A stretch of DNA of 64,000 nt from Sphingobium sp. HWE2-09. Lineage in GTDB: Bacteria; Pseudomonadota; Alphaproteobacteria; Sphingomonadales; Sphingomonadaceae. A program made the translations under genes and the position numbers. The stretch is from the NCBI RefSeq assembly GCF_035989265.1, contig NZ_JAYKZX010000001.1, positions 789,501-853,500 of the forward strand. Direction: 5' to 3'. The notes beneath the pieces are model-generated. The model worked only from the letters and a program-made list of their open reading frames with translations. It ran no database searches and was not told the DNA's origin. Position 1 is the stretch's first letter, and the number at the start of each line of letters is the position of its first letter. Positions 12,066-63,007 of the stretch are shown piece after piece.

Positions 12066-12079
12066 ATAACGATCGTTAT
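12066..12079. promoter_or_regulatory. Palindromic operator candidate, copy 1
   Basis: ATAACGATCGTTAT, a perfect 14-bp palindrome, sits between the divergent NTF2-like genes starting at 12016 (minus) and 12134 (plus). The 12-bp core TAACGATCGTTA recurs exactly at 16424 and 54321, and with one or two central changes at 58188, 61442 and 62989. Confidence 0.75.
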
Positions 12080-12133
12080 AAAAAGGGCAAGCGGGCATCG
12101 TAAAAATCTGCCCGGGAACAAGAGGAGAGGGTG

Positions 12134-12529
12134 ATGCAGCGTGCCGACTATGATCGCTATGCGCAGGCATTCAACGATCGCGATTACGACACCGTCTATG
12201 ATTTCTACGCCGACGGCGCGGCCATCCGTTTCTTCGGCGTGGATTTAGGTTCGCGCGCTGCGTTCAAGCGTTTCTACGCCTTCCTCCACGCCCATGTCAT
12301 CGAAACGCTAACGATCGAACGCTTCGCAGCCAGCGACACGCTCGTCGCGCTGGAAGGGATCATCCGGGTCGAAGGCATTCAGGATCTCGACGCCGCCACG
12401 CTGGCCGCGCGGGGGCTGGACCAGTTCGCTCCCATCGCCAAGGGGCAGGTCCAATCGATGCGCCAATATATCCATTATCATGTCGAAAACGGCCGCTTCA
12501 CCAGCGTGGGTTGCGCAATAATGGGGTGA
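12134..12529 (+). CDS. NTF2-like (SnoaL-type) protein
   Basis: A 131-residue NTF2-like protein, divergent from the one at 11627. It opens YDRYAQAFNDRDYDTVYDFYADGAAIRFFG, then AAFKRFYAFLHAHVIETLTIERF and a C-terminal RQYIHYHVENGRFTSVGCAIMG, which matches the fold's alternating helices and beta sheet. GAGGAGAGG stands directly before the start region; I chose the ATG at 12134, with a GTG at 12131 as the alternative. It is followed by a small inverted repeat and a MarR gene. The two NTF2-like proteins are clearly different in sequence, so this is not a recent tandem copy. Function unknown. Confidence 0.8.
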   Translation: MQRADYDRYAQAFNDRDYDTVYDFYADGAAIRFFGVDLGSRAAFKRFYAFLHAHVIETLTIERFAASDTLVALEGIIRVEGIQDLDAATLAARGLDQFAPIAKGQVQSMRQYIHYHVENGRFTSVGCAIMG

Positions 12530-12542
12530 ACGATCGCTCATG

Positions 12543-12565
12543 GGCAGCTTGACTTGCAAGCTGCC
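12543..12565 (+). promoter_or_regulatory. Inverted repeat upstream of second MarR gene
   Basis: GGCAGCTTG (12543-12551) and CAAGCTGCC (12557-12565) form a perfect 9-bp inverted repeat with a five-base centre. It ends two bases before the first possible start of the MarR gene and includes a TTGACT that could be a -35 element. This is the arrangement of an autoregulatory MarR operator; a hairpin ending the upstream gene is the alternative. Confidence 0.5.
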
Positions 12566-12567
12566 AG

Positions 12568-13128
12568 ATGCCCTATCGGAAAACCATGTCGAACAGCAGC
12601 CCGCCCAGTAAGCCCTCCGCGCCACATGCTGCCGAAACCAGCCCGGCCGATACGCTCCATCGCGTGCTGCGTCTGGCGAACAAGCTGATGGCGCCTTTCT
12701 CCACCTATTTGGAGCATCGGTACAAGATCAGCCTCAACGAATTTCGCCTGCTGATGCTGATCGGTCGCAACCCCCATACGGCCAGTCACGAACTGGCCGA
12801 AATGACCGGGGTCAATCCGATGAGCGTATCGCGCGCCGTCGCCGCGCTGCAGAAACATGGCCGCATCATGGTGGAGCGCGATCCGGGCAACAAGCGGCGC
12901 AAGACGCTGATCCTGACCGACGAAGGCCAACGGCTCTACGGCCTGATGCGCCCGCAGACGGACAAGGTGGCGACCTATCTCGTCTCCGATCTCGCCAGCA
13001 GGGAGGTCGATATGCTCAACCAATATCTCGATACGCTGGTCGACACGCTGGAGGCCGTGGACGCGGATGGCAACAGCCGCTTCCTTGAATTTACCCGACC
13101 CGAAGGCGAAGACGAACCCGCCACCTGA
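12568..13128 (+). CDS. MarR-family transcriptional regulator
   Basis: A MarR-type winged-helix protein of 180-186 residues. The first ~28 residues are Ser/Pro/Ala-rich and probably disordered. The domain follows: [37 protein letters not shown] in pieces, recognition helix in [20 protein letters not shown], and the wing [17 protein letters not shown]. Starts at 12568 and 12586 are both possible, neither with a good ribosome site. It is quite different from the ferulate repressor at 7598. Its target could be its own 12543-12565 repeat, the upstream NTF2-like gene, or the formaldehyde genes 75 bases downstream; the sequence does not decide. Confidence 0.82.
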
Positions 13129-13202
13129 TCCCCGATGGCGCGGCATGCTTTTGCCTGCACCATCCCACCTGTCCGGCACCAATCACATACGGGAGTATAG
13201 CC

Positions 13203-15160: not shown

Positions 15161-15185
15161 ACCCTGGCGATGCAGCGCGGGACCA

Positions 15186-16397
15186 TCAACCCGCCTGCCT
15201 CCCGCCCAGCGCCAGCATCACCACCGCCATCAGCGTGAAGCTGCCACCCAGCAAAGCTGCCAGCGGCAGCACGGTCATCGACGGCAGCAGCGACACCGCG
15301 CCGCTCGCCAGCGCGGTGATCGCCAGTTGCAGCGTGCCGAGCAGCCCAGTCGCCGCGCCCGCTCCGCCGCCCGCGGCGTCCAGCGCGGAAATGGCGGCCG
15401 GGGTCAGGATCAGCCCCGCCAGCGCAAAAAGGAGCATAGCATAAAGTTGGAACGCGCCGATCGAGACGGCGAGTGCGACAGTTGCGAGCGCCAGCAGCGC
15501 CGTCGCCGCGATCGCGATCGTCGCCGCGCTAGACACCAGCCGCCGCGCACCCAGGCGGCGCATCATGGACGGCGCGAACTGGGTGGCGATGATCGACGTC
15601 ACGGCATTGAGCGCCAGCAACAGGCTATATTGATGCGCGGTGAGGCCAAAGCTCTGCGTATAGAGAAAGGGGGCCGCGGTGACGAAGGCGAAGGGAATGG
15701 TCGTCGCCAGTCCCGCCACCATCGTCCAACCTAGAAAGGCCGGAGCGGTCAGCAAGCGGCGATAGCTTTCCAGCACCGGCACTCTATGCAGCCGCCGTTC
15801 GGGCGGCAGCGATTCCGGCAGAAGCATGAGGACGGCGACCAGCGCTACGATACCGCCGCCCGCCAGCAACGCGAACAGCCCACGCCATGCCATGATCTGC
15901 AACAGGTAACTGCCCGCCAATGGCGCCAGGACCGGCGAAATACCGATGATCAGGAAGGTGAAGGCCATCAACTGCGCGGCGCGATGGCCGCTATGCCGAT
16001 CGCGGATCATCGCCCGCACGCTGGCCGTGCCCGCACATGCCCCCATGCCCTGCAGGAAACGGCAGGCGATCAACATGGGCAGGCTGGTCGCCAGGGCGCA
16101 GGCGATCGAGGCGACCGAAAACAGCGCTAGCCCGCCGATCAACGGCCGCCGCCGCCCGAACCGGTCTCCCAATGTGCCGAGCGGTATCTGCGCCAGCGCC
16201 AGACCCAGGAAGAAGGCGGACAGCGTGCGCTGCACCGCGCCGCTGTCTGCTGCCATCGCCCGCGCCATGCCCGGCATGGCAGGCAGATACAGGTCGATGG
16301 CGAAGGGACCGAGCGAAGACAGAAAGCCGAAGGCGATGCCCAGCAACAAGCTCGGTTCGCCCTCCGTCCGGTCGGTCGGGTCGTTGACGTGCGGCAT
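15186..16397 (-). CDS. MFS drug:proton antiporter, Bcr/CflA type
   Basis: A 403-residue 12-span transporter of the DHA1 branch. The family loop after helix 2, GTLGDRFGRRRPLIGGL, and the antiporter motif in helix 5 (MAFTFLIIGISPVLAPLAGSYL in pieces) are present, as is FLQGMGACAGTASVRAMIRD, typical of Bcr/CflA members, which export drugs or small metabolites. It is convergent with frmB, 25 bases apart. Its start region faces the aromatic-acid MFS gene at 16587, with one TAACGATCGTTA palindrome 26 bases upstream of this gene's start. Export of a toxic aromatic intermediate would fit, but this is inference. Confidence 0.85.
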   Translation of the reverse strand: MPHVNDPTDRTEGEPSLLLGIAFGFLSSLGPFAIDLYLPAMPGMARAMAADSGAVQRTLSAFFLGLALAQIPLGTLGDRFGRRRPLIGGLALFSVASIACALATSLPMLIACRFLQGMGACAGTASVRAMIRDRHSGHRAAQLMAFTFLIIGISPVLAPLAGSYLLQIMAWRGLFALLAGGGIVALVAVLMLLPESLPPERRLHRVPVLESYRRLLTAPAFLGWTMVAGLATTIPFAFVTAAPFLYTQSFGLTAHQYSLLLALNAVTSIIATQFAPSMMRRLGARRLVSSAATIAIAATALLALATVALAVSIGAFQLYAMLLFALAGLILTPAAISALDAAGGGAGAATGLLGTLQLAITALASGAVSLLPSMTVLPLAALLGGSFTLMAVVMLALGGRQAG

Positions 16398-16422
16398 CCT
16401 CTGCTTGTCCCTCGATCATTTA

Positions 16423-16436
16423 ATAACGATCGTTAT
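16423..16436. promoter_or_regulatory. Palindromic operator candidate, copy 2
   Basis: ATAACGATCGTTAT, identical over 14 bases to the copies at 12066 and 54320. It lies 26 bases before the start of the minus-strand MFS gene and about 150 before the plus-strand MFS gene. Confidence 0.75.
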
Positions 16437-16501
16437 ATTTATCGGGGGACTTCCACAAGCCCTGCCGTGCTGCCACCGCCCCTCGCTTTGGATTTGCATA
16501 A

Positions 16502-16518
16502 TGTGTCGTCAGCATACA
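16502..16518 (+). promoter_or_regulatory. 17-bp putative FerC operator, copy 3
   Basis: TGTGTCGTCAGCATACA, 69 bases upstream of the aromatic-acid MFS gene. TTGCAT (16494-16499) just before it could be a -35. It shares the TGT, TC, GC and ACA positions with the copies at 7555, 8081 and 54220 and is the most divergent of the four. Confidence 0.6.
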
Positions 16519-16586
16519 ATGTGGCGGGCGAGGGGGACGGCAGCCATCGGCGATCCAACCCCATAGGATGGAGAGGAACGCCGCCC

Positions 16587-17921
16587 ATGGCCGTCATACC
16601 GACAGCAATCCTGCCTGCCGACGACCCGCGCAGCATATTGGCCAGCCGCCCAATGCGTCTGCCCCAGATCGTGGCGATCGCCATCTGCTTCCTGCTCAAT
16701 GCGCTCGACGGCTTCGACATCCTGGCCGTGACCTTCGCCGCGCCCGGCATCGCGCGGCAATGGAGCGTCGGTCCCGGGGCGATCGGCCTGGTCGTATCGG
16801 CCGGGCTGGCGGGCATGGTGGTGGGATCGTTGACGCTGGGCCAGCTGGCCGACCGGATCGGCCGACGACCGCAAATCCTCCTCTGTCTCGCTATCATGGT
16901 TAGCGGCATGTTCGCCTCCGCTTTCGCGCCCAATGTCGTGGTCCTCTGCCTGTTACGGGCCTTCACTGGCCTTGGCCTCGGCGCCGTGCTGGCGGCGGTC
17001 AATGCCGCATCGGCGGAGTTCGCCAGCCGTCGCCGCCGCGACTTGGCGGTCAGCATCATGGCCGCGGGCTATCCGGTCGGCGGCATCCTCGGCGGCTGGG
17101 GCGCGGCCATGCTGTTGCGCAACCATGGCTGGGAATCGATCTTCCTGGCCGGGGCAGGGGCTACCGCTGTGATGGTGCCGCTGGTCCTGCTGTGCCTGCC
17201 TGAATCGGTCAGTTGGCTCGCCACCCGCCATGGTCCCGCCGCCCTGCCGCGCATCAACGCCATCATGCGTCGCCTCGGTCAGCCGGAGGCGGGGCAGGTG
17301 GCGATCGTGGACGAACCGCAAGCGTCGATGGGGCAGCTGTTTGGCCCCCGCTACCGCAGCACCACTATCGCCCTCATCGTCATGTACGGCCTGCACATGA
17401 TGACCTTCTATTATGCGCTGGGCTGGGCGCCCTCGCTGGTCGTGGCATTGGGCTTCGATCCGTCGCGCGCGAGCATCGTGTCGGTCTTCATGAACATGGG
17501 CGGCGCGATCGGCGGTTTGACGCTGGGCTTCCTGTCGCCGCGCCTGGGCCTGCGACCGCTGGTCATCTTCGGACTCGCCGGAGCGGCAGTGGCCGTCGCG
17601 GCCTTCGGCGCGGTGCCCGCCGCCATGGTCTGGCTCCAGATCGCCGCCTTCATCCTGGGCTTCCTAGCCAATGGATCGGTGGTCGGCCTCTACGCCCTTA
17701 TCGCCAACATCTATCCCACCACTCTGCGCGCGACGGGCACCGGCACAGTGATCGGCTTCGGGCGCATGGGCGCGGCGCTCGGCCCGTTCCTCGCCGGACA
17801 GTTGCTGGCGGCGGGGGCAGGGCGGGGCGCGACTTCGCTATTGCTGGCGCTGGGATCGGGCGTCGCCGCGCTCGTCCTGTTGCTCGCGCGGCTGCGCCTG
17901 GCCGATGAGGAAACGGGTTAG
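16587..17921 (+). CDS. MFS aromatic acid:proton symporter (AAHS type)
   Basis: A 444-residue 12-span transporter that resembles PcaK/VanK/BenK. Helix 1 carries LLNALDGFDILAVTFAAPGI, with the paired Asp residues of the DGFD motif that define aromatic-acid H+ symporters. The helix 2-3 loop GQLADRIGRRPQILL and the helix 8-9 loop are in place. GGAGAGGAACG precedes the ATG at 16587; a longer frame upstream to 16389 has no ribosome site and crosses both operators. With a FerC-type operator upstream, uptake of ferulate or a related hydroxycinnamate/vanillate is the best guess. Confidence 0.85.
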   Translation: MAVIPTAILPADDPRSILASRPMRLPQIVAIAICFLLNALDGFDILAVTFAAPGIARQWSVGPGAIGLVVSAGLAGMVVGSLTLGQLADRIGRRPQILLCLAIMVSGMFASAFAPNVVVLCLLRAFTGLGLGAVLAAVNAASAEFASRRRRDLAVSIMAAGYPVGGILGGWGAAMLLRNHGWESIFLAGAGATAVMVPLVLLCLPESVSWLATRHGPAALPRINAIMRRLGQPEAGQVAIVDEPQASMGQLFGPRYRSTTIALIVMYGLHMMTFYYALGWAPSLVVALGFDPSRASIVSVFMNMGGAIGGLTLGFLSPRLGLRPLVIFGLAGAAVAVAAFGAVPAAMVWLQIAAFILGFLANGSVVGLYALIANIYPTTLRATGTGTVIGFGRMGAALGPFLAGQLLAAGAGRGATSLLLALGSGVAALVLLLARLRLADEETG

Positions 17922-18016
17922 CGCCACCCATCTATATGCGCCATCCGGGCGACAAAGCCGCCCACCCCATATTCGCATCCCATCACCGCACTCACGCATT
18001 TTCTCACTGGCAAGCT

Positions 18017-20274: not shown

Positions 20275-21789
<1,515 letters not shown>

Positions 21790-30467: not shown

Positions 30468-31789
30468 GCGAATTGCCGATCCTGCTGGTCGATGACGACG
30501 AAGCGCTGCGCCATGCGCTGGTTCAGTCCTTTCAACTGGCCGACATGGCGGTGGAAGCCTTTGCCGATGGGGCGTCGGCGCTGGCGCGGCTGGACGCGGG
30601 GTTCGGCGGCGCGATCGTGTCGGACATTCGCATGCCGCGCATGGACGGCAACGAGCTGTTCAGGCGGGTCGCGGCGATCGATCATGAAATTCCTGTCATC
30701 CTGATGACGGGTCATGGCGACGTGCCAATGGCGGTTGCGGCGTTGAAGGCCGGGGTGTTCGATTTCATCGCCAAGCCCTTCGCCACCGATCATCTAGTCG
30801 CATCGGCACGGCGCGCGCTGGAGATGCGACGGCTAGTGCTCGACAATCGCCGGTTGCGCGCGGCGGCGGATGAAAGCGCGGGCGGCGAGCCATTGATCGG
30901 CGAGACGCCGGTGATGGTGCGGCTGCGCGAGAATATGCGACAGGTCGCCGATGCCGACGTCGACATATTGATCGAGGGGGAGACCGGCACGGGGAAGGAA
31001 CTGGTTGCGACGCTGCTCCACCGCTGGAGCCGCAGGCGCGGGCGTCCGTTCGTCGCGATCAACTGCGCGGCGTTGCCCGATGCGATCGCGGAGGTGGACC
31101 TGTTCGGTCAGGAAAGCGGGCGGACGCCGCATGCGCGCACGACCCAGTCGGGCCGCATCGCGCGCGCGAACAAGGGGTCGCTGTTCCTGGACGAGATCGA
31201 GAGCAGCCCGACATGGTTGCAGGGCGCGCTGCTGCGCGTGCTGGAGGAACGGGAAATCCTGCCCGTGGGGGCGGAGCAGCCGCAGGCGGTGGACTTGCGC
31301 GTGATCGCGGCGACCAAACCGGGGATCGAAGCGAGCGTCACCGAAGGCCGCTTTCGCGCCGACCTGCTCTATCGGCTGGACATGGTAAGGCTGCGCATCC
31401 CGCCATTGCGTGAGCGGCGGGCCGACGTGCCGTTGCTGTTCGGCTATCTGCTGCATCATGCGGCCGAGCAGATGAAGCGCGACGTGCCGCGTATCGGGCC
31501 GGACATTCAGGCCTATCTGGCCGATCATGACTGGCCCGGCAATGTGCGCGAACTGACCAATTTCGCCAAGCGGACGGTGCTGGGCATGCAGGCGGACGGT
31601 GCTGGTGACGGGCGCTTTCTCTCGCTCGCCCATCAGGTCGAACGGTTCGAAGCAGGGGTCATCCGCCAAGTGCTGGAGCGCGTCCAGGGCGACGCCCGAT
31701 CCGCCATGGCTGAGTTGCAGCTGCCGCGAAAAACCTTTTACGACAAACTCAATCGCCATGGCATCGAGATCGACGGTTATCGACCATGA
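30464..31789 (+). CDS. dctD: DctD-type response regulator with degenerate GAFTGA loop
   Basis: A 441-residue NtrC-family regulator: receiver domain with phospho-acceptor Asp54 (SDIRMPRMDG), AAA+ domain with Walker A EGETGTGKEL (171-180) and Walker B GSLFLDEIE, and a Fis-type helix-turn-helix at the end (LERVQGDARSAMAELQLPRKTFYDKL in two parts). The loop that contacts sigma-54, normally GAFTGA, reads GRTPHA here (219-224), so sigma-54 activation is doubtful; regulators such as HupR and TyrR also lack it and work with other promoters. It overlaps dctB by four bases. Target sites are probably the two repeats between dctA and dctB. Confidence 0.9.
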   Translation: MSELPILLVDDDEALRHALVQSFQLADMAVEAFADGASALARLDAGFGGAIVSDIRMPRMDGNELFRRVAAIDHEIPVILMTGHGDVPMAVAALKAGVFDFIAKPFATDHLVASARRALEMRRLVLDNRRLRAAADESAGGEPLIGETPVMVRLRENMRQVADADVDILIEGETGTGKELVATLLHRWSRRRGRPFVAINCAALPDAIAEVDLFGQESGRTPHARTTQSGRIARANKGSLFLDEIESSPTWLQGALLRVLEEREILPVGAEQPQAVDLRVIAATKPGIEASVTEGRFRADLLYRLDMVRLRIPPLRERRADVPLLFGYLLHHAAEQMKRDVPRIGPDIQAYLADHDWPGNVRELTNFAKRTVLGMQADGAGDGRFLSLAHQVERFEAGVIRQVLERVQGDARSAMAELQLPRKTFYDKLNRHGIEIDGYRP

Positions 31790-53329: not shown

Positions 53330-53348
53330 CCCCGCATATTGTCAGGCC
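53323..53348. terminator. Bidirectional hairpin between efflux operon and ferB
   Basis: GGCCTGAC (53323-53330) pairs with GTCAGGCC (53341-53348) around a ten-base loop. The arms contain the stop codons of both convergent genes. No strong T run follows, so termination strength is uncertain. Confidence 0.55.
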
Positions 53349-54178
53349 TGGGTCTTCGACTTCGTTAGATCATAGGCGCCCAGACCTGGCTTGTAGCTCT
53401 TTTCATCGATGAACTGGCGAATGCCTTCCTTGCGGCCTTCGCTCTTGTCGTGGAAATTGGCCGCTTCCTGCATCCGGACCAGATAATCCTCCGCCTCGTC
53501 ATAGGTCATGGTGCCCACGCGGCGCACCGCATCCTTGGCGAATTTCAGCGCCACCGGATTCTTCTTCAACAGCATCTCGGCCACTTGAGTGGTCCGAGCC
53601 TTGAGCTGCTCCAGCGGCACGCTTTCATTGACCAGCCGCATCGTCGCCGCCGCCTTGCCGTCGATCAGGTCGCCGGTCAGCGTCAGCCACATGGCGTCGC
53701 GCATCGGCAGCAGGTCGACCACCACCTTGGTCACGCCACCGCCGGGCAATATACCCCAGTTGATCTCGGACAGACCGAATTGCGCCTCGTCCGCGCAGAT
53801 GGCGAGGTCGCAGGCGAAGAGCGGGCCGAACCCGCCGCCAAAGCACCAGCCGTTGACCATAGCGACGGTCGGCTTGTTGTACCAGCGCAGGCGGCGGAAC
53901 CAGCCATAGCTCTCCGCCTGCGACTTGCGCACGCCGCGCAGACCTTGCGACTCGGTTTCCCGGAAATATTCCTTCAGGTCCATGCCCGCCGACCAGGCCG
54001 TGCCTTCGCCGCCCAGCACCAGCACGCCGACATCGTCGCGATATTCCAGTTCGTCCAGCACTTCCATCATGCGGCGGTTGAGCGTCGGACTCATCGCGTT
54101 GCGCTTGGCGGGCCGAGCGAAATTCACCCAGGCGATGCGGTCTTCGATATGTACCGAAACGACGTCCTGCTCTTCCAT
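53342..54178 (-). CDS. ferB: Feruloyl-CoA hydratase/lyase (vanillin-forming)
   Basis: A 278-residue crotonase of the p-hydroxycinnamoyl-CoA hydratase/lyase type, which hydrates feruloyl-CoA and splits it into vanillin and acetyl-CoA. Diagnostic stretches are TAWSAGMDLKEYFRE, VNGWCFGGGFGPLFACDLA, and FGLSEINWGILPGG, whose Glu138 corresponds to the catalytic Glu143 of the Pseudomonas enzyme; the C-terminal DDKSIKPGL-like segment reads DEKSYKPGLGAYD. AAGGAG lies seven bases before the ATG at 54178. Unlike SYK-6, where ferB and ferA are adjacent, it is 44 kb from ferA here, but a nearly identical 17-bp operator precedes both. Confidence 0.9.
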   Translation of the reverse strand: MEEQDVVSVHIEDRIAWVNFARPAKRNAMSPTLNRRMMEVLDELEYRDDVGVLVLGGEGTAWSAGMDLKEYFRETESQGLRGVRKSQAESYGWFRRLRWYNKPTVAMVNGWCFGGGFGPLFACDLAICADEAQFGLSEINWGILPGGGVTKVVVDLLPMRDAMWLTLTGDLIDGKAAATMRLVNESVPLEQLKARTTQVAEMLLKKNPVALKFAKDAVRRVGTMTYDEAEDYLVRMQEAANFHDKSEGRKEGIRQFIDEKSYKPGLGAYDLTKSKTQA

Positions 54179-54219: not shown

Positions 54220-54236
54220 TGTATCATAGGCATACA
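54220..54236 (+). promoter_or_regulatory. 17-bp putative FerC operator, copy 4
   Basis: TGTATCATAGGCATACA, a symmetric TGTAT-N7-ATACA element 42 bases upstream of ferB. It differs from the ferA copy at 8081 by only two bases (AT for GC at positions 13-14). Confidence 0.75.
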
Positions 54237-54319
54237 ATATGGAGGGCGCAGCAGACAAGGCATTTTTACGATCGGATTGCAGCGCTGGCGGCTTGACAAC
54301 TGCTCCGTCCAGACAGATG

Positions 54320-54333
54320 ATAACGATCGTTAT
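54320..54333. promoter_or_regulatory. Palindromic operator candidate, copy 3
   Basis: ATAACGATCGTTAT, 38 bases before the SDR start, with TTGACA (54293-54298) upstream so that it would overlap the -10 region of a plus-strand promoter. Identical to the copies at 12066 and 16423. The FerC-type operator is 84 bases away, so the divergent region carries two different sites. Confidence 0.75.
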
Positions 54334-54370: not shown

Positions 54371-55125
54371 ATGGATGTGCAGGGCAAAACGGCGCTCGTC
54401 ACCGGCGGCGCTTCCGGGTTGGGCGCCGCACTGGTGTCTCACTTGCTGTCCGCAGGCGCACATGTTGTGGTCCTGGACGTGCAGATCAGCACCGCGCCCG
54501 GCGTGCAGTCTTTCCTCTGCGATATCACCGACGAGGCTGCAGTCGCCACGGCGATGGCGCAGGTCGGCCCGTTATCGATCCTGGCTAATATGGCCGGGAT
54601 CGGCGGCATCGGCTCGATCGCCACGCCGACGGGACCGGGCGATGTCGCGGCTTTTCGCCGGGTGATCGACGTCAATCTGCTGGGCGCGGTGCATGTGACC
54701 GCTCATGCCGCCCACCGCATGATCGGCAATGCGCCCGACGGTGCCGATCGCGAGCGGGGCGTGATCCTCAACGCCTGCTCCATCGCCTCGTTCGAAGGGC
54801 AGGAGGGTATGGGCGCCTATGGCGCGTCCAAAGCGGCGCTCGCCGCGCTGACCCTCATCTGGGCGCGCGACCTGTCGCGCCATGCGATCCGCTGCGTCGG
54901 GATCGCGCCTGGTTTCTTCGCCACCCCCATGACGGCATCCATGCCTGCCCCCTGGTCGAGGAACTGGTGGGCGGCATGGAATTTCCCCGCCGGGCTGGCA
55001 CGGCGGAGGAGTGTGCCGACGCGGCCATGTTCCTGATCCGCAATCCGATGATCAATGCCGAAATATTGCGCCTCGACGGCGGCGCACGTCCGCCCGCGCG
55101 CACGCGCTGGACCGCGGCGGCCTGA
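54371..55125 (+). pseudogene. SDR, coniferyl-alcohol-dehydrogenase-like, frameshifted near the C terminus
   Basis: A classical SDR with TGGASGLGAA, NMAGIGG and the catalytic YGASKAA. The intact frame runs to about 54947 (PGFFATPMTASMPA) and then breaks: as written it continues in a foreign frame to a stop at 55034-55036, but the proper C terminus, LVEELVGGMEFPRRAGTAEECADAAMFL and LRLDGGARPP, is encoded in the next frame from about 54951 to the stop at 55123. Adding one base in the C-run at 54948-54952 (for example restoring a His codon) rejoins the frames to 251 residues. Length and neighbours (PCMH-type hydroxylase, ferB) fit CalA-like coniferyl alcohol dehydrogenase. It may be a true mutation or a sequencing error. 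Confidence 0.8.
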
Positions 55126-55156: not shown

Positions 55157-56689
55157 ATGGCCTCCACTCTTCCCCCCGCCACCATTGCCGCCTTTGCGGC
55201 GATCGTCGGCAAGGATCATGTCTTCTTCGAAGAAGCCGACCAGGCCAGCTATCAGGACAAGTTCGCGATAGACGATGCGCGCCATCATCCTGCAGGCGCC
55301 GTCGCGCCGGCCACGGTCGAGGAAATCCAGGCGATCGTCCGCATCGCCGCCGAACGAAGCGTGGCGCTATGGCCGATCAGCCGGGGCAAGAATCTGGGGT
55401 ATGGCGGCTCCGCGCCGTTGCTGTCGGGATCGGTCGTCTTGGACCTCAGCCGCATGAAGAAGATCGACTATGATGAGGTGAACGGCACGGTGCTGCTGGA
55501 GCCGGGGGTGGGCTTTTACGACCTGTATGATTTCCTGAAGTCGAAGGGCATGAAGCACTGGCTGTCGGTGCCAGGCAACAGTTGGGGGTCGGTGGTCGGT
55601 AACGCCCTGGACCGCGGCGTGGGCTATACCCCCTATGGCGAACATGCGACGCGCATCTGCGGCGTGGAAGCCGTGATGGCCGATGGGTTGGTCGTGCGCA
55701 CCGGCATGGGCGCGCTGGATGGCGCGCCGACATGGCAGCTCTATCGGTTCGGCTTTGGTCCCGGCTGGGATCAGATGTTCGTCCAGTCTAATTTCGGCAT
55801 CGTTACCAAGATGGGCCTGTGGCTGATGCCGGCGCCTGAATCGCTGATGGGCATGGACCTAGAGTTCGACCGGCCGGAGGATTTGGGGCCGCTGATCGAC
55901 GCGATCGGACCGCTGCGGCGTGAAGGGTTGTTGCAGCAATCGCCGACCATCGGCAACTGGCTGCGCGCCGCCGCCGTCGTCACGACCCGCGACCAGTGGA
56001 CCGACAAGCCCGGTGCGTTGCCCGACGATGTGATCGCGGCGATCCGCAAGAAATTCAACGTCGGCTGGTGGGGCGTCAGCCTGCGCCTCTATGGCCGGGA
56101 CTCGGTCAACAAGGCCGCCTATGCGATATTGGAACAGGAGATGGGCAAGCTCAAACCCCTGTCGCTGCGGCCCACCGTCTGGAAGACGGGCGAACCGCTG
56201 GAGGCGACCGGCTGGACCGGCACGCCGCTCACCATGCCGATGCAGAACGCCAACTGGCACGGTGGACGGGGTGGTCATATCGGCTTTTCCCCGATCCTGC
56301 CGCAATCGGGCGCAGCGGCCCAAGCTCAGTTCCAGCGCACCTATGCCCGCTACAAGGAATATGGAATGGATTATCAGGCCAGCTTCGCCTTTGGCGAACG
56401 CCATCTGATCAACGTCAACGCCGTGCTGATCAACAAGGATGATCCCGATCTCATGGACCGGGTCGACCCCTTCCTCAAACATCTGATCGCGGATGCCAAG
56501 AGCCAGGGTTATGGCGAATATCGCACCCATCTCGACTATATGGACGCGGTCGCAGGCACCTATGACTATAACAAAGGGGCGCTCGCAACCTTGAACCGCA
56601 AGGTGAAGGATGCGCTTGATCCCAAGGGCGTGATCGCGCCCGGCAAGAGCGGTATCTGGCCCAGCGCCCGGATGGGAGGGAAAGGCTGA
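55157..56689 (+). CDS. FAD-dependent 4-alkylphenol hydroxylase, PCMH/eugenol hydroxylase flavoprotein subunit
   Basis: A 510-residue VAO/PCMH-family flavoprotein. FAD-binding domain: PISRGKNLGYGGSAP and VLLEPGVGFYDLYDFL, then NALDRGVGYTPYGEH. The C-terminal half carries the family segments GEYRTHLDYMD and KDALDPKGVIAPGKSGIWP, as in p-cresol methylhydroxylase, vanillyl-alcohol oxidase and eugenol hydroxylase. A cytochrome c gene begins in its stop codon, so electrons go to cytochrome rather than oxygen, the PchFC/EhyBA or pinoresinol-hydroxylase arrangement. It should convert a 4-alkylphenol to a quinone methide that adds water. With ferA, ferB and an SDR nearby, eugenol to coniferyl alcohol is the leading guess. 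The covalent flavin residue cannot be assigned without alignment. A frame upstream of 55157 is not used. Confidence 0.88.
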   Translation: MASTLPPATIAAFAAIVGKDHVFFEEADQASYQDKFAIDDARHHPAGAVAPATVEEIQAIVRIAAERSVALWPISRGKNLGYGGSAPLLSGSVVLDLSRMKKIDYDEVNGTVLLEPGVGFYDLYDFLKSKGMKHWLSVPGNSWGSVVGNALDRGVGYTPYGEHATRICGVEAVMADGLVVRTGMGALDGAPTWQLYRFGFGPGWDQMFVQSNFGIVTKMGLWLMPAPESLMGMDLEFDRPEDLGPLIDAIGPLRREGLLQQSPTIGNWLRAAAVVTTRDQWTDKPGALPDDVIAAIRKKFNVGWWGVSLRLYGRDSVNKAAYAILEQEMGKLKPLSLRPTVWKTGEPLEATGWTGTPLTMPMQNANWHGGRGGHIGFSPILPQSGAAAQAQFQRTYARYKEYGMDYQASFAFGERHLINVNAVLINKDDPDLMDRVDPFLKHLIADAKSQGYGEYRTHLDYMDAVAGTYDYNKGALATLNRKVKDALDPKGVIAPGKSGIWPSARMGGKG

Positions 56690-57084
56690 TGCGTCGTCCG
56701 ACGATCGCGCTCGCCGCCGCTATGCTGGTCCTGGCGGGTGCCGCCTGCGGCCGGGCGAGCGAATCGCCGACGCAAGCACCGAAGGGACCGCCACCCTTAC
56801 CCGCGCCGGAAACGCTGTCGTCTCGTCCGGCTGCCGGACCGGGCGAGAAATTGTATCTTGCAAAATGCGCGATGTGCCATGGTCCTGGGGGGATGGGAAC
56901 AGGGCTGCTGGCGCGGCGGACCGAGCAGCCATTGCTGGAGAAGCGCACCGACCTGACCGTCGACTATGTCGTGCAGGCCGCGCGCATGGGCATAGGCAAT
57001 ATGCCCGCCATACCGCGCGGCGAAGTCAGCGATGCCGAACTGCAATTGATTGCGGAGCATCTGGCTAAAGGAGCCAAGCCATGA
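56689..57084 (+). CDS. Cytochrome c subunit of the 4-alkylphenol hydroxylase
   Basis: A 131-residue c-type cytochrome. Signal peptide with a lipobox (LAGAAC, Cys20), a Pro-rich linker, heme site CAMCH (Cys60-His64) and the probable axial Met in IGNMPAIP. The size and position fit PchC/EhyA, which accepts electrons from the flavoprotein. Its ATG shares an A with the TGA of the flavoprotein gene, and the next gene overlaps it by four bases. Being a predicted lipoprotein, it may hold the complex at the membrane. Confidence 0.9.
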   Translation: MRRPTIALAAAMLVLAGAACGRASESPTQAPKGPPPLPAPETLSSRPAAGPGEKLYLAKCAMCHGPGGMGTGLLARRTEQPLLEKRTDLTVDYVVQAARMGIGNMPAIPRGEVSDAELQLIAEHLAKGAKP

Positions 57085-57590: not shown

Positions 57591-57650
57591 ACGCTGTCGG
57601 TCGAGACGCTGTTGGCAGCGTGCCAACGCTTCTCGACCGATTAAATCCGC

Positions 57651-58148
57651 TTAGCGCTTGATGATCAGCGAATCCGGCCGCTTGCGCGGCACCCATTCAC
57701 CGCGGCCGGGAAAATTCTTGAGGATTTCCCCATCCCACAATCGCACCGTGCGGCGCTGGAATCGCCACTGGCCGTCGGCTTCCTTGATGGCGTGATCGTC
57801 ATACCACCCGGCAAAACGCAGCAGATAGGGAGGTTCGCCGTCGCATTCCGTGACGAAGGCGAAGGAGCGCATGGTGCAACTCCCGTCATCTTGCGGCCGA
57901 TATTGAGTTTGCGTGACATGATGCTGACGACCGGGGAAGCCGGGCGCATTGCGATAATGTTCGGCGATGCCGCGAATGCCAGCATGACCTTCCCAGATAT
58001 CGGGATCGTCGAAAACTTCCTCCACCATCCGTGCGTCCGGCGTGAAGCAGGCGACCAGCGCGTCCACATCGCCGGTATCCAGCGCCCAGCTATAGGCGGC
58101 GATCAGGTCTTGGAGCGCAATCCTGTCCTCGATCGGAAGGGAAGGCAT
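57651..58148 (-). CDS. NTF2-like protein, candidate LdpA-type lyase
   Basis: A 165-residue SnoaL/NTF2-like protein: IALQDLIAAYSWALDTGDVDALVACFTPDARMVEE gives the N-terminal helices, and HHVTQTQYRPQDDG, GWYDDHAIKEADGQWRFQRRTVRLWDG the sheet. Length and pattern match bacterial aromatic NTF2-like enzymes. GAGGAGAG precedes the ATG at 58148. Divergent from an NmrA-PQQ-ADH pair, with the TAACATTCGTTA palindrome between. Sphingomonads use an NTF2-like enzyme (LdpA) to turn a diarylpropane into lignostilbene with release of formaldehyde; a lignostilbene-dioxygenase-like gene lies 3.3 kb away, so such a role is worth testing. Direct evidence is absent. Confidence 0.75.
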   Translation of the reverse strand: MPSLPIEDRIALQDLIAAYSWALDTGDVDALVACFTPDARMVEEVFDDPDIWEGHAGIRGIAEHYRNAPGFPGRQHHVTQTQYRPQDDGSCTMRSFAFVTECDGEPPYLLRFAGWYDDHAIKEADGQWRFQRRTVRLWDGEILKNFPGRGEWVPRKRPDSLIIKR

Positions 58149-58187
58149 GATGGGTCTCTCCTCAAGTTCTTTGGCTTGACGACATAA

Positions 58188-58199
58188 TAACATTCGTTA
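58188..58199. promoter_or_regulatory. Palindromic operator candidate, copy 4 (variant)
   Basis: TAACATTCGTTA here, TAACGAATGTTA on the minus strand: one base away from TAACGAACGTTA. It is embedded in a longer AT-rich near-palindrome (58184-58206) between the divergent genes starting at 58148 and 58245. Confidence 0.65.
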
Positions 58200-58244
58200 C
58201 TATTATCTGCAACAAGACGACAGATCGCGCAAGTGAGAGGACGC

Positions 58245-59159
58245 ATGGCGAAGATCATTATTTCGGGCGCGTCGGGCGCCTTCGGACGGGCGGCCGCCCT
58301 GTTGCTGCTCGACAAGGTCGCGCCGCGCGATGTCATCCTGCTGACGCGGACACCCGAAAAACTGGCGGATCTTGCTGCCCGTGGCGCTGATGTGCGCTTT
58401 GCCGATTTCGACGATCCTGCCTCGCTAGGCCCGGCCATGACGGGCGGCGACAGGATGTTGTTGATCAGCACTGCGCGGGTCGGCACCCGGGTCGGCCAGC
58501 ATCGCAACGCCGTGGAAGCCGCGGTCGCGGCAGGCGTAGGGCATATCGTCTATACATCGATCATTGCAGCCGATGCGCCCGGCAATCCGGCGATCGTCAA
58601 GAACGACCATCGTGCGACGGAGGAAATCATCGAGGCATCCGGCGCAGCCTGGACGCATTTGCGCGACAGCCAATATGCCGAAGCGATCGCGGGGCCGATG
58701 ACTATCCCTGCGCTGATGGCGGGGGGCAAGCCCGACAATTGCGGCGACGGCACGGTCGCTTTCGTCAGCCGCAACGATTGCGTCGCCACCGCCGTTGGCG
58801 TGCTGACGCAGGCGGGCCATGAGAATAAGGCCTATGTACTGACGGGGCCGGACCTCATTACCATACCGATGGCGATGGCGATGGCGAGCCGGATCGCAGG
58901 CAAGCCGATCCGGGTCGAAGCGGTCGATGACGACGCGATGTTCGCTTATTTCGACGCACTGGGCGCGCCGCGCCACGCTTCCGACATCCTGCCCGACGGA
59001 CCCATCCCCTGGTCCAGCGACGATATGGTGACCTTCGGTCAATCGATCCGTGAAGGCTATTTCGCCGAAAAGACCGAATGGGTCGAACGGATCACCGGTC
59101 GCAAACCTGCCAGCCTGTACGATGTGATGCTGGCGCATAAGGGAAGCTGGCCGCTGTGA
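58245..59159 (+). CDS. NmrA-type NAD(P)-binding reductase
   Basis: A 304-residue atypical SDR of the NmrA/isoflavone-reductase-like group: IIISGASGAFGRAAALLLL is the nucleotide-binding start, followed by RTPEKLADLAARGADVRFADF, a cofactor-specificity region with Arg as in NADPH-using relatives. There is no YxxxK pair. Relatives include plant pinoresinol reductases and the sphingomonad PinZ, and also regulatory NmrA proteins. ATG at 58245 follows GAGAGG; GTG at 58233 is possible. The stop overlaps the PQQ dehydrogenase start (GTGA). A reductive step on a lignan or phenylpropanoid is possible, but substrate is unknown. Confidence 0.8.
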   Translation: MAKIIISGASGAFGRAAALLLLDKVAPRDVILLTRTPEKLADLAARGADVRFADFDDPASLGPAMTGGDRMLLISTARVGTRVGQHRNAVEAAVAAGVGHIVYTSIIAADAPGNPAIVKNDHRATEEIIEASGAAWTHLRDSQYAEAIAGPMTIPALMAGGKPDNCGDGTVAFVSRNDCVATAVGVLTQAGHENKAYVLTGPDLITIPMAMAMASRIAGKPIRVEAVDDDAMFAYFDALGAPRHASDILPDGPIPWSSDDMVTFGQSIREGYFAEKTEWVERITGRKPASLYDVMLAHKGSWPL

Positions 59160-61339
59160 GGAACGCGATACTGGCGATGGCCGGGCTGTTGGCGCTGGTC
59201 GGCTGCGCATCGGGCGGACGCGATGTCGGCGCCGGTGACGATTGGCCCTATACCGGCGGCGATGTCGGGGGCAGCCATCATTCGCGCCTGACCGATATCG
59301 ACAAGGGCAATGCGGGCCGGCTGGGCCTGGCCTGGTCCTATGATTTGAACACCAATCGCGTACAGGAAGCGACGCCGGTGGTGATCGATGGCGTCATGTA
59401 TAGCAGCGGCAATTTGGGCCGGGTCTATGCGCTGGACGCCGCGACCGGCAAGCCGCTCTGGACCTTCGAGCCGGAGGTGGACATGCAGGCGAACCGGTCC
59501 GCCTGCTGCGACCAGGCCAATCGCGGCGTCGCCGTCGCCAATGGCAAGGTGATGGTCGGCGCGCTGGACGGCATGCTCTATGCGCTGGATGCGAAGACCG
59601 GCAAAATCCTCTGGAAAGTCGACACGGTGGTCGATCACAGCCGCGGCTATACCAGCACCGGCGCGCCCGAAGTGGCGGGCGACCTGGTCCTCATCGGCAA
59701 TGCCGGTGCCGAATATGATACGCGCGGCTATGTGACGGCCTATCGTATCGCCGATGGCGGGCAGGCCTGGCGCTTCTACACCGTGCCGCACGATCCGGCG
59801 AAGGGGCCGCAAGAGGGAAAGGCGCTCGACGTCGCGCTCAAGACGTGGGACGCCAAGAGCCGCTGGGATATTGGCGGCGGTGGTACGGTCTGGGACGCGA
59901 TCAATTATGATCCCAAATATGGCACCGTCTATATTGGCGTCGGCAATGGCGGCCCCTATTCGATCGCGACCCGATCGCCCAAGGGCGGCACCAATCTCTA
60001 CCTCTCCTCCATCGTCGCGCTGGACGCGAAGAGCGGGGCGGTGAAGTGGCATTATCAGGAAACGCCCGGCGACAGCTGGGACTTCACGGCGACCCAGCCG
60101 ATGGTGCTGACCGACATGGAAGTGGACGGCAAGGTCCGCCCGGTCATCCTGCATTCGCCCAAAAACGGCTATCTGTTCGTGCTGGACCGCGAAACCGGCA
60201 AGCCGCTGCGGGTGAACGCCCTGGTGCGGACGAACTGGGCCAAGGGGTTCGACAAGAATGGCGTGCCGCAGATGACGCCGGAGCGTACGGACTTCTGGAA
60301 CGGGCCGCGCATCATCTATCCCGCGTCGGCGGGCGCGCGCAACTGGTATCCGGCGGCCTATGACGCGGAACGCAAAAGCTATTATGCCCATGTGCTGGAC
60401 ATGGGGAACCTCATGTTCACGGTGCCGCCCGGTACGCCGGCACAACCCCGGCGACCCAAAGCGCTTAACGTCCAGACGACGCTGATCTTCACGCCGCAAT
60501 TGCAGGCTGTGCTGCCGACCCTGCCGCCTGCGATCAGGGCGCAGGTGGAAAAGCTGCCGGAAATGCAGTGGGTGAAGGACAAGCCCTATAGCAGCGAACT
60601 GCGCGCGATCGACCCGCTGACTGGCAAGGCGCGCTGGGCGGTGCCGACGGAGGGATGGCAGGACCGGATGGGTGTGCTGTCGACCGCATCTGGTCTGATC
60701 GTCCATGGCACGATCGGCGGCAAGCTGATCGTGCGGGACGCCGACAATGGCACGCTGATCAAAGCGATCGACACCGGCAGTTCGATCATGGCGGCGCCCA
60801 TGACCTATCGGGTGAAGGGCGTGCAATATATCGCGGTCGCGGCGGGTTTTGGGGGTGGCGGTTGGGGTTATGTGCCGCGCTATTCGGCAGCCTACCGCAA
60901 TGGCAACGCCAATCGCATCCTGGTGTTCAAACTGGATGGCGGGCCGGTGACGCAGCCGACGCCGTTGCCGCCGATGGTACCGGCATCCGCGCCGCCCGCG
61001 CAGAAGCCCGGCGTGACGCCTGCGGTCCTGGCGAAGGGGCAGGGGTTGTTTTTCCAGAATTGCGCCATCTGCCACAGCAATCAGTTGCGCTCCACCGCGC
61101 CCGACCTGCGGCGGATGCAACCGGCGACGCATGACGTCTTCAACCAGATCGTGCGGGACGGGTTGCTGCTGCCCAATGGCATGCCGCGCTGGGACGATCT
61201 GCTCAGCGTGGACGATGTCGATGCCATCCATGCCTGGCTGATCGCCGAACAGGGACCGTTGCGGGAACGGGAGCTGAAACTCAAGGCCGCGGGCAAGCCG
61301 ATCGATGCGCCCAGCGCCGCCATCATGTCCAATTTCTAG
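59156..61339 (+). CDS. PQQ-dependent quinohemoprotein alcohol dehydrogenase, lipoprotein
   Basis: A 727-residue quinohemoprotein: eight-bladed PQQ propeller plus a C-terminal cytochrome c domain (CAICH at 636-640). Signal peptide with lipobox LVGC (Cys17). The adjacent-cysteine disulfide (Cys117-Cys118 in SACCDQ) and the catalytic Asp in GDSWDFTA are present. Two positions after this Asp is Thr, not the extra Asp of lanthanide-dependent XoxF-type enzymes, so a calcium enzyme is predicted. It starts with GTG sharing bases with the NmrA stop. It probably oxidises a periplasmic aromatic alcohol (vanillyl or coniferyl type) and passes electrons to its heme. Confidence 0.92.
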   Translation: MRNAILAMAGLLALVGCASGGRDVGAGDDWPYTGGDVGGSHHSRLTDIDKGNAGRLGLAWSYDLNTNRVQEATPVVIDGVMYSSGNLGRVYALDAATGKPLWTFEPEVDMQANRSACCDQANRGVAVANGKVMVGALDGMLYALDAKTGKILWKVDTVVDHSRGYTSTGAPEVAGDLVLIGNAGAEYDTRGYVTAYRIADGGQAWRFYTVPHDPAKGPQEGKALDVALKTWDAKSRWDIGGGGTVWDAINYDPKYGTVYIGVGNGGPYSIATRSPKGGTNLYLSSIVALDAKSGAVKWHYQETPGDSWDFTATQPMVLTDMEVDGKVRPVILHSPKNGYLFVLDRETGKPLRVNALVRTNWAKGFDKNGVPQMTPERTDFWNGPRIIYPASAGARNWYPAAYDAERKSYYAHVLDMGNLMFTVPPGTPAQPRRPKALNVQTTLIFTPQLQAVLPTLPPAIRAQVEKLPEMQWVKDKPYSSELRAIDPLTGKARWAVPTEGWQDRMGVLSTASGLIVHGTIGGKLIVRDADNGTLIKAIDTGSSIMAAPMTYRVKGVQYIAVAAGFGGGGWGYVPRYSAAYRNGNANRILVFKLDGGPVTQPTPLPPMVPASAPPAQKPGVTPAVLAKGQGLFFQNCAICHSNQLRSTAPDLRRMQPATHDVFNQIVRDGLLLPNGMPRWDDLLSVDDVDAIHAWLIAEQGPLRERELKLKAAGKPIDAPSAAIMSNF

Positions 61340-61441
61340 CGGTGACGATGCGACGGCGCGCCGTGACGTGAGACAGGGATGGCGACAGTTGTGAGCGATT
61401 AACACCGGCCGGTCGCGGGCATTCCAGCCTTGATATTATAA

Positions 61442-61453
61442 TAACGAACGTTA
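61442..61453. promoter_or_regulatory. Palindromic operator candidate, copy 5
   Basis: TAACGAACGTTA, 33 bases before the carotenoid-oxygenase-type gene. TTGATA (61430-61435) and CATATA (61455-61460) flank it as possible promoter elements. No other feature is seen in this 147-base gap. Confidence 0.7.
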
Positions 61454-61486
61454 GCATATAAATGAGACGATAAGGAGCGAGAGGCC

Positions 61487-62962
61487 ATGTCAGCCTACCC
61501 CCAGACGATCCATTTTACCGGGCTGAATACGCCCGTCGGCATCGAATGGTCTGTCCGCAATCTGGATGTCGTAGGTACGATGCCCGCAGAGATAGACGGC
61601 GCCTTTTTCCGGGCCGTGCCGGACCCTGCCCATGCGCCGATGTTCGCCGACGATATCGTCCTGTCCGGCGATGGCATGATCTCGAAATTCACCATCCATG
61701 ACGGCCAGGTGGATTATGCGATCCGTTATGTCGAAACCGAGCGATACCGATTGGAAAAGGATTCGCGGCGCGCGCTGTTCGGTCAATATCGCAATCCCTT
61801 CACCGACGATCCGGCCGTGGCGGGGCGCGACCGTACCGTCGCCAATACTACGCCGGTCTGGCATGGCGGGCGGCTGTTCATGACCAAGGAGGACGGCTTT
61901 GGCTACGAGATCGATCCCGATACGCTGGAGACGATCGGCCGCTGGAACTATCATGGCGCCTTCACGTCGCAGACCTTCACCGCGCACCCCCGCGTCGATC
62001 CGGACACCGGCGAAATGTTCTTCTTCGGCTATGAAGCCGACGGGCTATGTTCGACCAGGGTCGCCTATGGCGTGGCGGATCGTGACGGCCATTTGTTGCG
62101 CGAACAATGGTTCGACCAGCCCTATTGTTCGTCCATCCATGATTTCGCGATCACGCAGACCTATGCGATTTTCCCGATCTTCCCCACGACCGCCGACGTC
62201 GACCGGTTGAAGGCGGGCGGCGCGCACTGGGCGCACCAGCAGGATCTGGACAGCTGGGTCGGCATCATGCCGCGCCATGGCGGTGTCGAGGATATGCGCT
62301 GGTTCAAGGGGCGGGCGGGCGTGTCCGCCTTCCACATCGTCAACGCCTATGACGATGGCGATCTCGTCCATCTCGACCTCTGCCTGTCGGACACGAATGC
62401 GTTCGGTTTCATGCGCGAAGCAGGCGGCATCCAGCGCGACCAGCGGGAGATACAGGGCGGGCTGACGCGCTGGACCTTCGACCTGTCGAAAGAGGGTGAC
62501 ACTTATGAAGAGCGGCTGATCGGCCCGCCGGGCGACATGCCGCGCCTGCGCGATGCCGACCAGGGGAGGCCCTATCGATCGGCCTGGTATCTGTCGATGA
62601 ACCCACAGGGTGGGCCGCCATTGCCGGGCGGGCCGGTCGGCTTCGCGTTCAATGCGCTGTTGCAGATCGAGCCGGGCAATGGCCGCATCGACATGATGGG
62701 GCTGGATTTCGGCATGGCGATCAGCGAGCCGGTCCATGTCCCGGCGCAGGCGCCCGACCATGCGGGATGGTTGCTGATGGTCGTGGACCGACAGGCGACG
62801 GAGACGGATTTCCGGTCCGAACTGTGGGTGGTGGACGCCGGGGCGATCGCCGCTGGACCAGTTGCGCGCGTGCCGATGCCCTTGCCGATGCGGGCGCAGG
62901 TGCATGGCGTGTGGGTTTCGGCGGCGCATCTGGCCGAGGCCCGCACCCGCAAGCCAGCCTGA
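61487..62962 (+). CDS. Carotenoid-cleavage-oxygenase family enzyme, lignostilbene dioxygenase/isoeugenol monooxygenase type
   Basis: A 491-residue non-heme iron oxygenase that splits an alkene bond next to a phenol. The four iron-binding histidines are visible: FTAHPRV (His167), SSIHDFA (His218), AFHIVNAY (His283) and QVHGVWV (His473). Tyr101 (in FGQYRNP) and Lys134 (in MTKEDG) correspond in number and context to the residues by which bacterial lignostilbene dioxygenases hold the substrate's 4-hydroxyl group, so a 4-hydroxystilbene or isoeugenol-type substrate is likely and carotenoids unlikely. Either would yield vanillin for the pathway here. GGAGCGAGAGG precedes the ATG. The Phe59 of lignostilbene dioxygenases appears as Leu. 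Confidence 0.9.
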   Translation: MSAYPQTIHFTGLNTPVGIEWSVRNLDVVGTMPAEIDGAFFRAVPDPAHAPMFADDIVLSGDGMISKFTIHDGQVDYAIRYVETERYRLEKDSRRALFGQYRNPFTDDPAVAGRDRTVANTTPVWHGGRLFMTKEDGFGYEIDPDTLETIGRWNYHGAFTSQTFTAHPRVDPDTGEMFFFGYEADGLCSTRVAYGVADRDGHLLREQWFDQPYCSSIHDFAITQTYAIFPIFPTTADVDRLKAGGAHWAHQQDLDSWVGIMPRHGGVEDMRWFKGRAGVSAFHIVNAYDDGDLVHLDLCLSDTNAFGFMREAGGIQRDQREIQGGLTRWTFDLSKEGDTYEERLIGPPGDMPRLRDADQGRPYRSAWYLSMNPQGGPPLPGGPVGFAFNALLQIEPGNGRIDMMGLDFGMAISEPVHVPAQAPDHAGWLLMVVDRQATETDFRSELWVVDAGAIAAGPVARVPMPLPMRAQVHGVWVSAAHLAEARTRKPA

Positions 62963-62976
62963 CCCGGACACGCCCC

Positions 62977-63007
62977 TTGACAATATAGTAACGAACGTTA
63001 GTAATAA
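62977..63007 (+). promoter_or_regulatory. Promoter of TonB receptor with palindromic operator copy 6
   Basis: TTGACA (62977-62982) and TAATAA (63002-63007) are spaced 19 bases. TAACGAACGTTA (62989-63000) occupies the spacer, a classic repressor position. The remaining bases to 63192 contain no supported gene and form a long leader. Confidence 0.7.

What the first reader, a model, noticed from the sequence alone, without database searches (positions are those of the whole stretch)
12066..63000. Six copies of a TAACGAWYGTTA palindrome mark an apparent second regulon
The palindrome occurs exactly as TAACGATCGTTA at 12067, 16424 and 54321 and as TAACGAACGTTA or TAACGAATGTTA at 61442, 62989 and 58188 (minus). 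Every copy is intergenic and within about 200 bases of a gene start: two NTF2-like genes, both MFS genes, ferB/SDR, NTF2-like/NmrA-PQQ, the lignostilbene-dioxygenase-type gene and a TonB receptor. A 12-mer of this kind is not expected even once in 64 kb by chance. In two promoters it sits between -35 and -10. No TetR/GntR-type gene is in the window, so the regulator is unknown.
Basis: seen in the sequence. Interest (0 to 1): 0.88.

Follow-up and report, generated by a model that had tools for sequence, protein, structure and literature searches.

The report
MarR switch for lignin-dimer catabolism genes
Six copies of one short palindrome sit in the promoters of genes for breaking down lignin-derived dimers in a Sphingobium, and comparison with relatives points to a MarR-type repressor encoded in the same stretch of DNA as the protein that reads them.

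Summary
TAACGAWCGTTA occurs five times in the 4.44-Mb genome, all five in this window; the sixth site (58188) has one mismatch. All six are promoter-proximal.

The window encodes a MarR-family protein (12568-13128, +), second gene behind the 12067 site. Of 94 genomes of the genus, the 25 holding this MarR are exactly the 25 with four or more TAACGNNCGTTA copies. TAAC-N4-GTTA lies within 700 bp upstream of the MarR gene in 63 of 74 relatives' loci; eleven letter-permuted palindromes give 0 of 74 each. The site stays with MarR while its neighbour genes change. Sites overlap predicted core promoters, which fits repression.

Genes behind the sites include a lignostilbene dioxygenase (75% to SYK-6 LsdF, the PinU counterpart), NmrA (PinZ-like), VAO flavoprotein plus cytochrome c, DUF3237 (PinX/PhcG-like), NTF2-like proteins, MFS transporters and a TonB receptor: a dimer-catabolic regulon, probably pinoresinol-like. 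Binding, repression, inducer and exact substrate are inferred. I found no regulator named in the passages read on the pin pathway. New member of a known kind.

The parts
12067..12078 (+). operator TAACGATCGTTA between NTF2b (leftward) and NTF2a-MarR (rightward)
16424..16435 (+). operator TAACGATCGTTA between two divergent MFS genes
54321..54332 (+). operator TAACGATCGTTA between ferB (leftward) and SDR-VAO-cytochrome c (rightward)
58188..58199 (-). operator TAACGAATGTTA (one mismatch) between NTF2c (leftward) and NmrA-PQQ dehydrogenase (rightward)
61442..61453 (+). operator TAACGAACGTTA before the lignostilbene dioxygenase gene
62989..63000 (+). operator TAACGAACGTTA before the TonB receptor gene
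12568..13128 (+). MarR-family regulator, proposed reader of the sites (alternative start 12586)
   Evidence: PF01047 44.4 bits, cut-off 24.6
12134..12529 (+). NTF2a (SnoaL_2), first gene of the MarR operon
11627..12016 (-). NTF2b (SnoaL-like), leftward from 12067
10863..11612 (-). SDR, behind NTF2b
10346..10846 (-). DUF3237 protein (PinX/PhcF/PhcG family)
   Evidence: PMC12607616 passage
15186..16397 (-). MFS transporter
16467..17921 (+). MFS transporter, aromatic acid/H+ symporter-like (TIGR00895 below cut-off); start uncertain
53342..54178 (-). p-hydroxycinnamoyl-CoA hydratase/lyase (ferB)
   Evidence: NF006588 465.4 bits, cut-off 276
54371..55036 (+). SDR
55157..56689 (+). VAO / cresol-dehydrogenase type flavoprotein (PinW-like)
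56689..57084 (+). cytochrome c (PinV-like by position)
57651..58148 (-). NTF2c (SnoaL_4); not at the LdpA place in SYK-6
58245..59159 (+). NmrA-type reductase (PinZ-like, 49% to the SYK-6 gene at the PinZ place)
59156..61339 (+). PQQ dehydrogenase with cytochrome c domain
61487..62962 (+). lignostilbene dioxygenase (75% to SYK-6 LsdF)
63193..64000 (+). TonB-dependent receptor; runs past the window end

Best explanation
The six palindromes are operators of one MarR-family repressor, encoded at 12568-13128. A dimer binds a site of about 20 bp (AYNN-TAACGWWCGTTA-NNRT) that overlaps the core promoter and keeps RNA polymerase off. A compound of the pathway releases it, so that uptake and breakdown genes for lignin-derived dimers, most likely beta-beta-linked pinoresinol-like ones, and the regulator's own operon are switched on together. 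Shown by sequence: site positions, restriction to this genome region, co-occurrence with the MarR gene, sites in front of the MarR gene, overlap with predicted promoters. Inferred: physical binding, repression rather than activation, the inducer, the substrate.
For: MarR domain above cut-off. Motif and MarR gene in the same 25 of 94 genus genomes; in the family three or more sites in 31 of 36 genomes with and 11 of 361 without MarR. Site within 700 bp upstream of MarR in 63 of 74 loci, 0 of 74 for each of 11 permuted palindromes, in several gene arrangements. Sites before NmrA 25 of 26, MFS1 21 of 23, NTF2c 25 of 30, LSD 32 of 46, against 0 of 18-32 for six neighbouring families. Promoter hexamers at fixed distances: TATAAT-like at +10 (56), TTGACA-like at -28 (32) and -12 (19).
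Against: No binding or expression data. MarR, motif and gene cluster travel together, so co-occurrence alone does not prove that this protein binds. 11 of 74 loci lack an exact site before MarR; four of them (L031, L033, L037, L061) lack even a one-mismatch site in the last 400 bp. 11 family genomes without a found MarR have three or more sites. An IclR gene is in 23 of 74 loci. No promoter was found at 16424. On the substrate: the window's flavoprotein is 76% identical to a SYK-6 protein although the review table lists no PinW in SYK-6, so it need not be PinW; NmrA is only 49% to the PinZ-place gene; no GMC-type PinY was seen in the window; LY transposon data showed no fitness effect for transporters (PMC12607616).
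Confidence: 0.82

Rival explanations
1. The sites are read by the other MarR-family gene of the window (7598-8059), a FerC/CouR-like regulator beside a feruloyl-CoA-synthetase-like gene.
For: It is also MarR-family, with CouR as best solved relative; MarR proteins often bind such palindromes (family knowledge).
Against: 0 of 17 family members in the loci have a TAACN4GTTA site near the start, 12 of 17 have an ATACAAT element there instead; it was found in only 17 of the 75 sequences clustered (74 loci and the window), while the palindromes occur in most loci.
Confidence: 0.04
2. An unlinked or other regulator (for example the IclR gene found in many relatives, or one elsewhere on the genome) reads the sites and MarR is itself only a target.
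For: IclR in 23 of 74 loci. A MarR gene can be a passive member of another regulator's regulon. Not all HTH families of the genome or all window genes were scanned; 30464-31789 begins like a response regulator by eye.
Against: A homologue of the L016 IclR protein is not in the window or about 19 kb on either side (weak hits only, E 0.4 or more); 1 of 23 IclR genes has a site before it. The site remains with MarR through different gene arrangements.
Confidence: 0.1
3. The MarR protein binds the sites but acts as an activator, or the repeats are a promoter feature without a dedicated regulator.
For: Sites lie at fixed distance from promoter hexamers.
Against: Overlap with the core promoter favours repression (family knowledge); motif copies are confined to genomes with the MarR gene and to this region, which a general promoter element would not be.
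Confidence: 0.03
4. Chance repeats.
For: Promoters are A+T-richer than the 63% GC window (for the GC value; the rest is general knowledge), so TA-rich words are commoner there.
Against: 6 seen against 0.43 expected; 0 of 74 for each permuted word; conserved at orthologous genes.
Confidence: 0.01

Closest known systems
DesR of Sphingobium sp. SYK-6 (MarR repressor of desB, ligM, desR; PMC6888825, abstract and passages read)
   Same: MarR-family, self-regulated, inverted repeats in promoters of lignin-aromatic catabolic genes
   Different: Operator GTTTGTGTCACATAC type and effectors vanillate/syringate; here TAACG-N2-CGTTA and dimer genes
Saro_0803 of Novosphingobium aromaticivorans (MarR repressor of nov1, released by resveratrol; PMC10046596, abstract and passages read)
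   Same: MarR regulator of a lignostilbene-dioxygenase gene, site between -35 and -10
   Different: Inverted repeat GCAATA------TATTGC; window MarR scores 29.1 on its NCBIfam model, cut-off 200
FerC (SYK-6) and CouR (MarR regulators of hydroxycinnamate catabolism; CouR PMC4737184 seen as listing and abstract start, FerC as reference only)
   Same: MarR family, aromatic catabolism
   Different: The window has a separate FerC/CouR-like gene (7598-8059) with another motif
pin pinoresinol pathway of Novosphingobium rhizosphaerae LY (PMC12607616, section 7 and passages read; PMC12997858, section 6 and passages read)
   Same: Dioxygenase, NmrA reductase, DUF3237 protein and flavoprotein-cytochrome pair of the same families
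   Different: No GMC-type PinY seen in the window, a PQQ dehydrogenase follows the NmrA gene; different gene order; no regulator named in what I read

Membership tests
MarR family | MarR winged-helix domain above the curated cut-off | tested here: met
   PF01047 44.4 bits, cut-off 24.6; PF12802 39.6, cut-off 27
MarR family | palindromic operator in own promoter and target promoters | tested here: met
   63 of 74 loci before MarR; targets; binding itself not tested
MarR family | dimer binds operator, ligand releases it | not testable with these tools
   needs EMSA or footprint
Saro_0803 group | NCBIfam NF053777 score at or above 200 | tested here: not met
   29.1 bits
HpaR group | TIGR02337 score at or above 121.2 | tested here: not met
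   39 bits
pin (pinoresinol) cluster | PinU-type dioxygenase | tested here: met
   75% to the SYK-6 LSD that is sixth by coordinate, taken as LsdF, paired with PinU in PMC12997858; the protein also passes the NOV2 model, which that table pairs with LsdA (54% here)
pin (pinoresinol) cluster | PinX-type DUF3237 decarboxylase | tested here: inconclusive
   66% to the place of SLG_07290, 85% to the gene beside SYK-6 MarR, 47 and 42% at the PhcG/PhcF place
pin (pinoresinol) cluster | PinZ-type reductase | tested here: inconclusive
   49% to the SYK-6 gene at the PinZ place, place interpolated
pin (pinoresinol) cluster | PinW/PinV flavocytochrome | tested here: inconclusive
   right families and order; SYK-6 has a 76% homologue though the table lists none for PinW
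pin (pinoresinol) cluster | GMC-type PinY | tested here: inconclusive
   not among the window genes scanned; not all window genes or the genome were scanned; GMC genes in 27 of the 75 sequences clustered
LdpA (DGPD formaldehyde lyase) | NTF2c matches SYK-6 at the LdpA place (SLG_12650, about 1.378 Mb by interpolation) | tested here: not met
   eight SYK-6 matches, none there

The most novel reading that the evidence does not exclude
One MarR repressor with a nearly fixed operator is the common switch for catabolism of beta-beta-linked dilignols across Sphingomonadales, reaching single Hyphomonas and Caulobacteraceae MAGs (L056, L034), and its operator marks unassigned pathway members such as NTF2c and a 290-residue protein with no Pfam family.
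Probability: 0.55. Interest if true: 0.62.

Novelty: new member of a known kind. Interest (0 to 1): 0.55.

Why it matters
The pinoresinol pathway was worked out genetically in 2025, and the passages I read name no regulator. A repressor-operator pair would allow controlled expression of dimer catabolism for lignin use, gives a candidate biosensor, and the operator can be used to find missing enzymes and transporters of such pathways in other genomes.

Tried and rejected
TetR/GntR regulator: not needed once MarR was found. The FerC/CouR-like MarR at 7598-8059 and the IclR gene of relatives were tested and set aside. NTF2c as LdpA: not borne out. Rfam: no match in the window. Structure prediction and viral-contig scans were not run. 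The inducer cannot be named from sequence.

Dropped or limited rows: locus L090 (28% match, Limosilactobacillus) was left out, so 74 of 75 loci were used; the 41% match in G127 was counted as no MarR (37 tallied, 36 used); site-gene clusters numbered above 14 were left out of the promoter-geometry count. The sites were found with TAAC[GA]NN[CT]GTTA, so the fixed letters in the frequencies come from the pattern; only the flanks (A at -3 in 82%, G at -2 in 0%) and the variable positions inform. One search scored eight candidates for most genomes, so a few MarR genes may be missed. Family counts were made by eye; genus counts were checked by script. ORF calls were by simple rules. Not all window genes were scanned with Pfam.

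Full report
CHECK. TAACGNNCGTTA with up to one mismatch gives 6 in the window against a shuffled mean of 0.43. The genome has 4,437,520 bases in 3 contigs; the window is C1:789501-853500. TAACGAWCGTTA occurs five times in it, all in the window; allowing one mismatch adds 58188 and six places outside. TAACGNNCGTTA occurs seven times, five in the window. So the exact motif is confined to about 51 kb of 4.4 Mb, and each site is promoter-proximal.

THE REGULATOR. A MarR-family gene lies at 12568-13128 (PF01047 44.4 bits, cut-off 24.6), behind NTF2a (12134-12529) and the site at 12067. A protein search gave 859 relatives at E up to 0.001 among 983 candidates, 120 listed. An alignment of 25 sequences (A1) brought 75 loci; L090 is a 28% match and was left out, leaving 74.

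TEST 1, CO-OCCURRENCE. Of 94 genomes of the genus, own included, 25 hold the MarR at E up to 1e-20. The same 25 hold four to eight TAACGNNCGTTA copies; the other 69 hold none to three, mean 0.52. In 397 genomes of the family, 31 of 36 with the MarR and 11 of 361 without it hold three or more; the two sets share 11 genomes of the genus. Genomes are related and the gene cluster travels with both, so the Fisher values are not independent evidence, and this shows linkage, not binding.

TEST 2, OWN PROMOTER. TAACN4GTTA lies within 700 bp upstream of the MarR gene in 63 of 74 loci; each of the eleven other palindromes made from permutations of the same letters gives 0 of 74. Of the 11 misses, seven have a one-mismatch site within 400 bp and four (L031, L033, L037, L061) have none. 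Neighbours of the site vary over the 63: LSD divergent from MarR 25, plus 3 with the right-hand gene unassigned; NTF2a directly behind the site, as in the window, 18; DUF3237 on the left 3, including SYK-6; left gene unassigned 11; other 3.

TEST 3, TARGETS. Members with a site within 300 bp upstream, or up to 100 bp inside the longest ORF: NmrA 25 of 26, MFS1 21 of 23, NTF2c 25 of 30, NTF2b 26 of 35, LSD 32 of 46, GMC 20 of 30, c290 23 of 35, NTF2a 35 of 56, MarR 36 of 67, MFS-aromatic 18 of 54, SDR 23 of 76, VAO 12 of 47, ALDH 7 of 45, DUF3237 4 of 50, tannase 4 of 19, PQQ dehydrogenase 2 of 15, Meth_synt_2 2 of 22, abhydrolase 1 of 14, IclR 1 of 23; SnoaL4_149, c156, DUF1097, ferA-like, c350 and GcvT 0 of 32, 28, 25, 21, 20 and 18. 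The low values for VAO and DUF3237 fit genes inside operons, which I did not test.

GEOMETRY. Over 332 oriented site-gene pairs, TTGACA-like hexamers (5 of 6 or better) peak at -28 (32) and -12 (19) from the first base of the palindrome, TATAAT-like ones at +10 (56). In the window, 12067, 58188, 61442 and 62989 (rightward) have a TTG-type hexamer at -12 and 54321 has TTGACA at -28; nothing was found at 16424. Flanking bases extend the site to AYNN-TAACGWWCGTTA-NNRT. A protein there would cover the core promoter, which fits repression.

OTHER REGULATORS. The genome has 23 MarR-domain matches, 21 above cut-off, two in the window. The second, 7598-8059, has CouR as best solved relative. Its second-best SYK-6 match (33%; best 32% by E-value at 843210) lies where ferBA are expected by interpolation. 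None of 17 family members has a TAACN4GTTA site near it; 12 of 17 have an ATACAAT element. An IclR gene is in 23 of 74 loci, and only weak hits (E 0.4 or more) appear in the window and the flanks L008 and L009. Other HTH families were not scanned genome-wide.

WHAT IS REGULATED. The LSD passes the NOV2 model (883.6 bits, cut-off 650). SYK-6 shows eight LSD matches; in coordinate order they fit LsdB, C, A, D, E, F, G, H by their SLG numbers, and the best (75%) is the sixth, LsdF (SLG_27970), which PMC12997858 pairs with PinU. That table pairs NOV2 with LsdA, which is 54% here, so the model name and the closest SYK-6 relative disagree. The DUF3237 protein is 85% to the gene divergent from the SYK-6 MarR and 66% to the place of SLG_07290, listed as pinX homologue. 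NmrA is 49% to the gene at the PinZ place. The flavoprotein is of the VAO/cresol-dehydrogenase family and a cytochrome c follows, as described for PinW and PinV. But SYK-6 has a 76% homologue beside its own MarR gene although the table lists no PinW there; so the set is pin-like, not proven pin. NTF2c has no match at the LdpA place. The SLG assignments rest on order and interpolation, and G027 = SYK-6 on equal coordinates.

LITERATURE. PMC12607616: section 7 and passages; MarR and TetR do not occur, 'regulator' once, as 'regulatory limitations'. PMC12997858: outline, section 6, passages. PMC10046596, PMC6888825, PMC8191317, PMC11837543, PMC10866074, PMC13273656: passages only. Searches: MarR+lignostilbene+Sphingobium 0 papers; MarR+pinoresinol+Novosphingobium 3, by title not on this; MarR+lignin+sphingomonad+regulon 3, of which PheR was checked and is an IclR-type repressor; the palindrome 1, a soybean paper. 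Subscription papers are not covered.

VERDICT. A real, conserved regulon; the window's MarR protein is the likely reader; mode of action, inducer and substrate are inferred. New member of a known kind.

Noticed in passing
7565-7577, 16512-16524, 54230-54242: A second shared element around ATACAAT (GCATACAATRTGG at 16512 and 54230, GGATACAATTTTG before the FerC/CouR-like MarR gene), conserved before that gene in 12 of 17 family members; probably that regulator's own operator. Two promoters carry both elements.
   Followed up: partly
L068:6515-8101 (SYK-6): A VAO flavoprotein gene 76% identical to the window's, with a palindrome before it, although the review table lists no PinW homologue in SYK-6.
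   Followed up: partly
L051:13598-14470: A family of about 290 residues without Pfam match, in 35 of the 75 sequences clustered, 23 of 35 with the palindrome before it, in SYK-6 too.
   Followed up: no
L053:3145-3915 and 22 other loci: An IclR-type regulator gene lies in 23 of 74 relatives' loci, not in the window; its targets are unknown.
   Followed up: partly
G000:C3:3235654-3237598: A second lignostilbene dioxygenase (48%) with a DUF3237 gene beside it on the large replicon, perhaps a separate dimer pathway.
   Followed up: no
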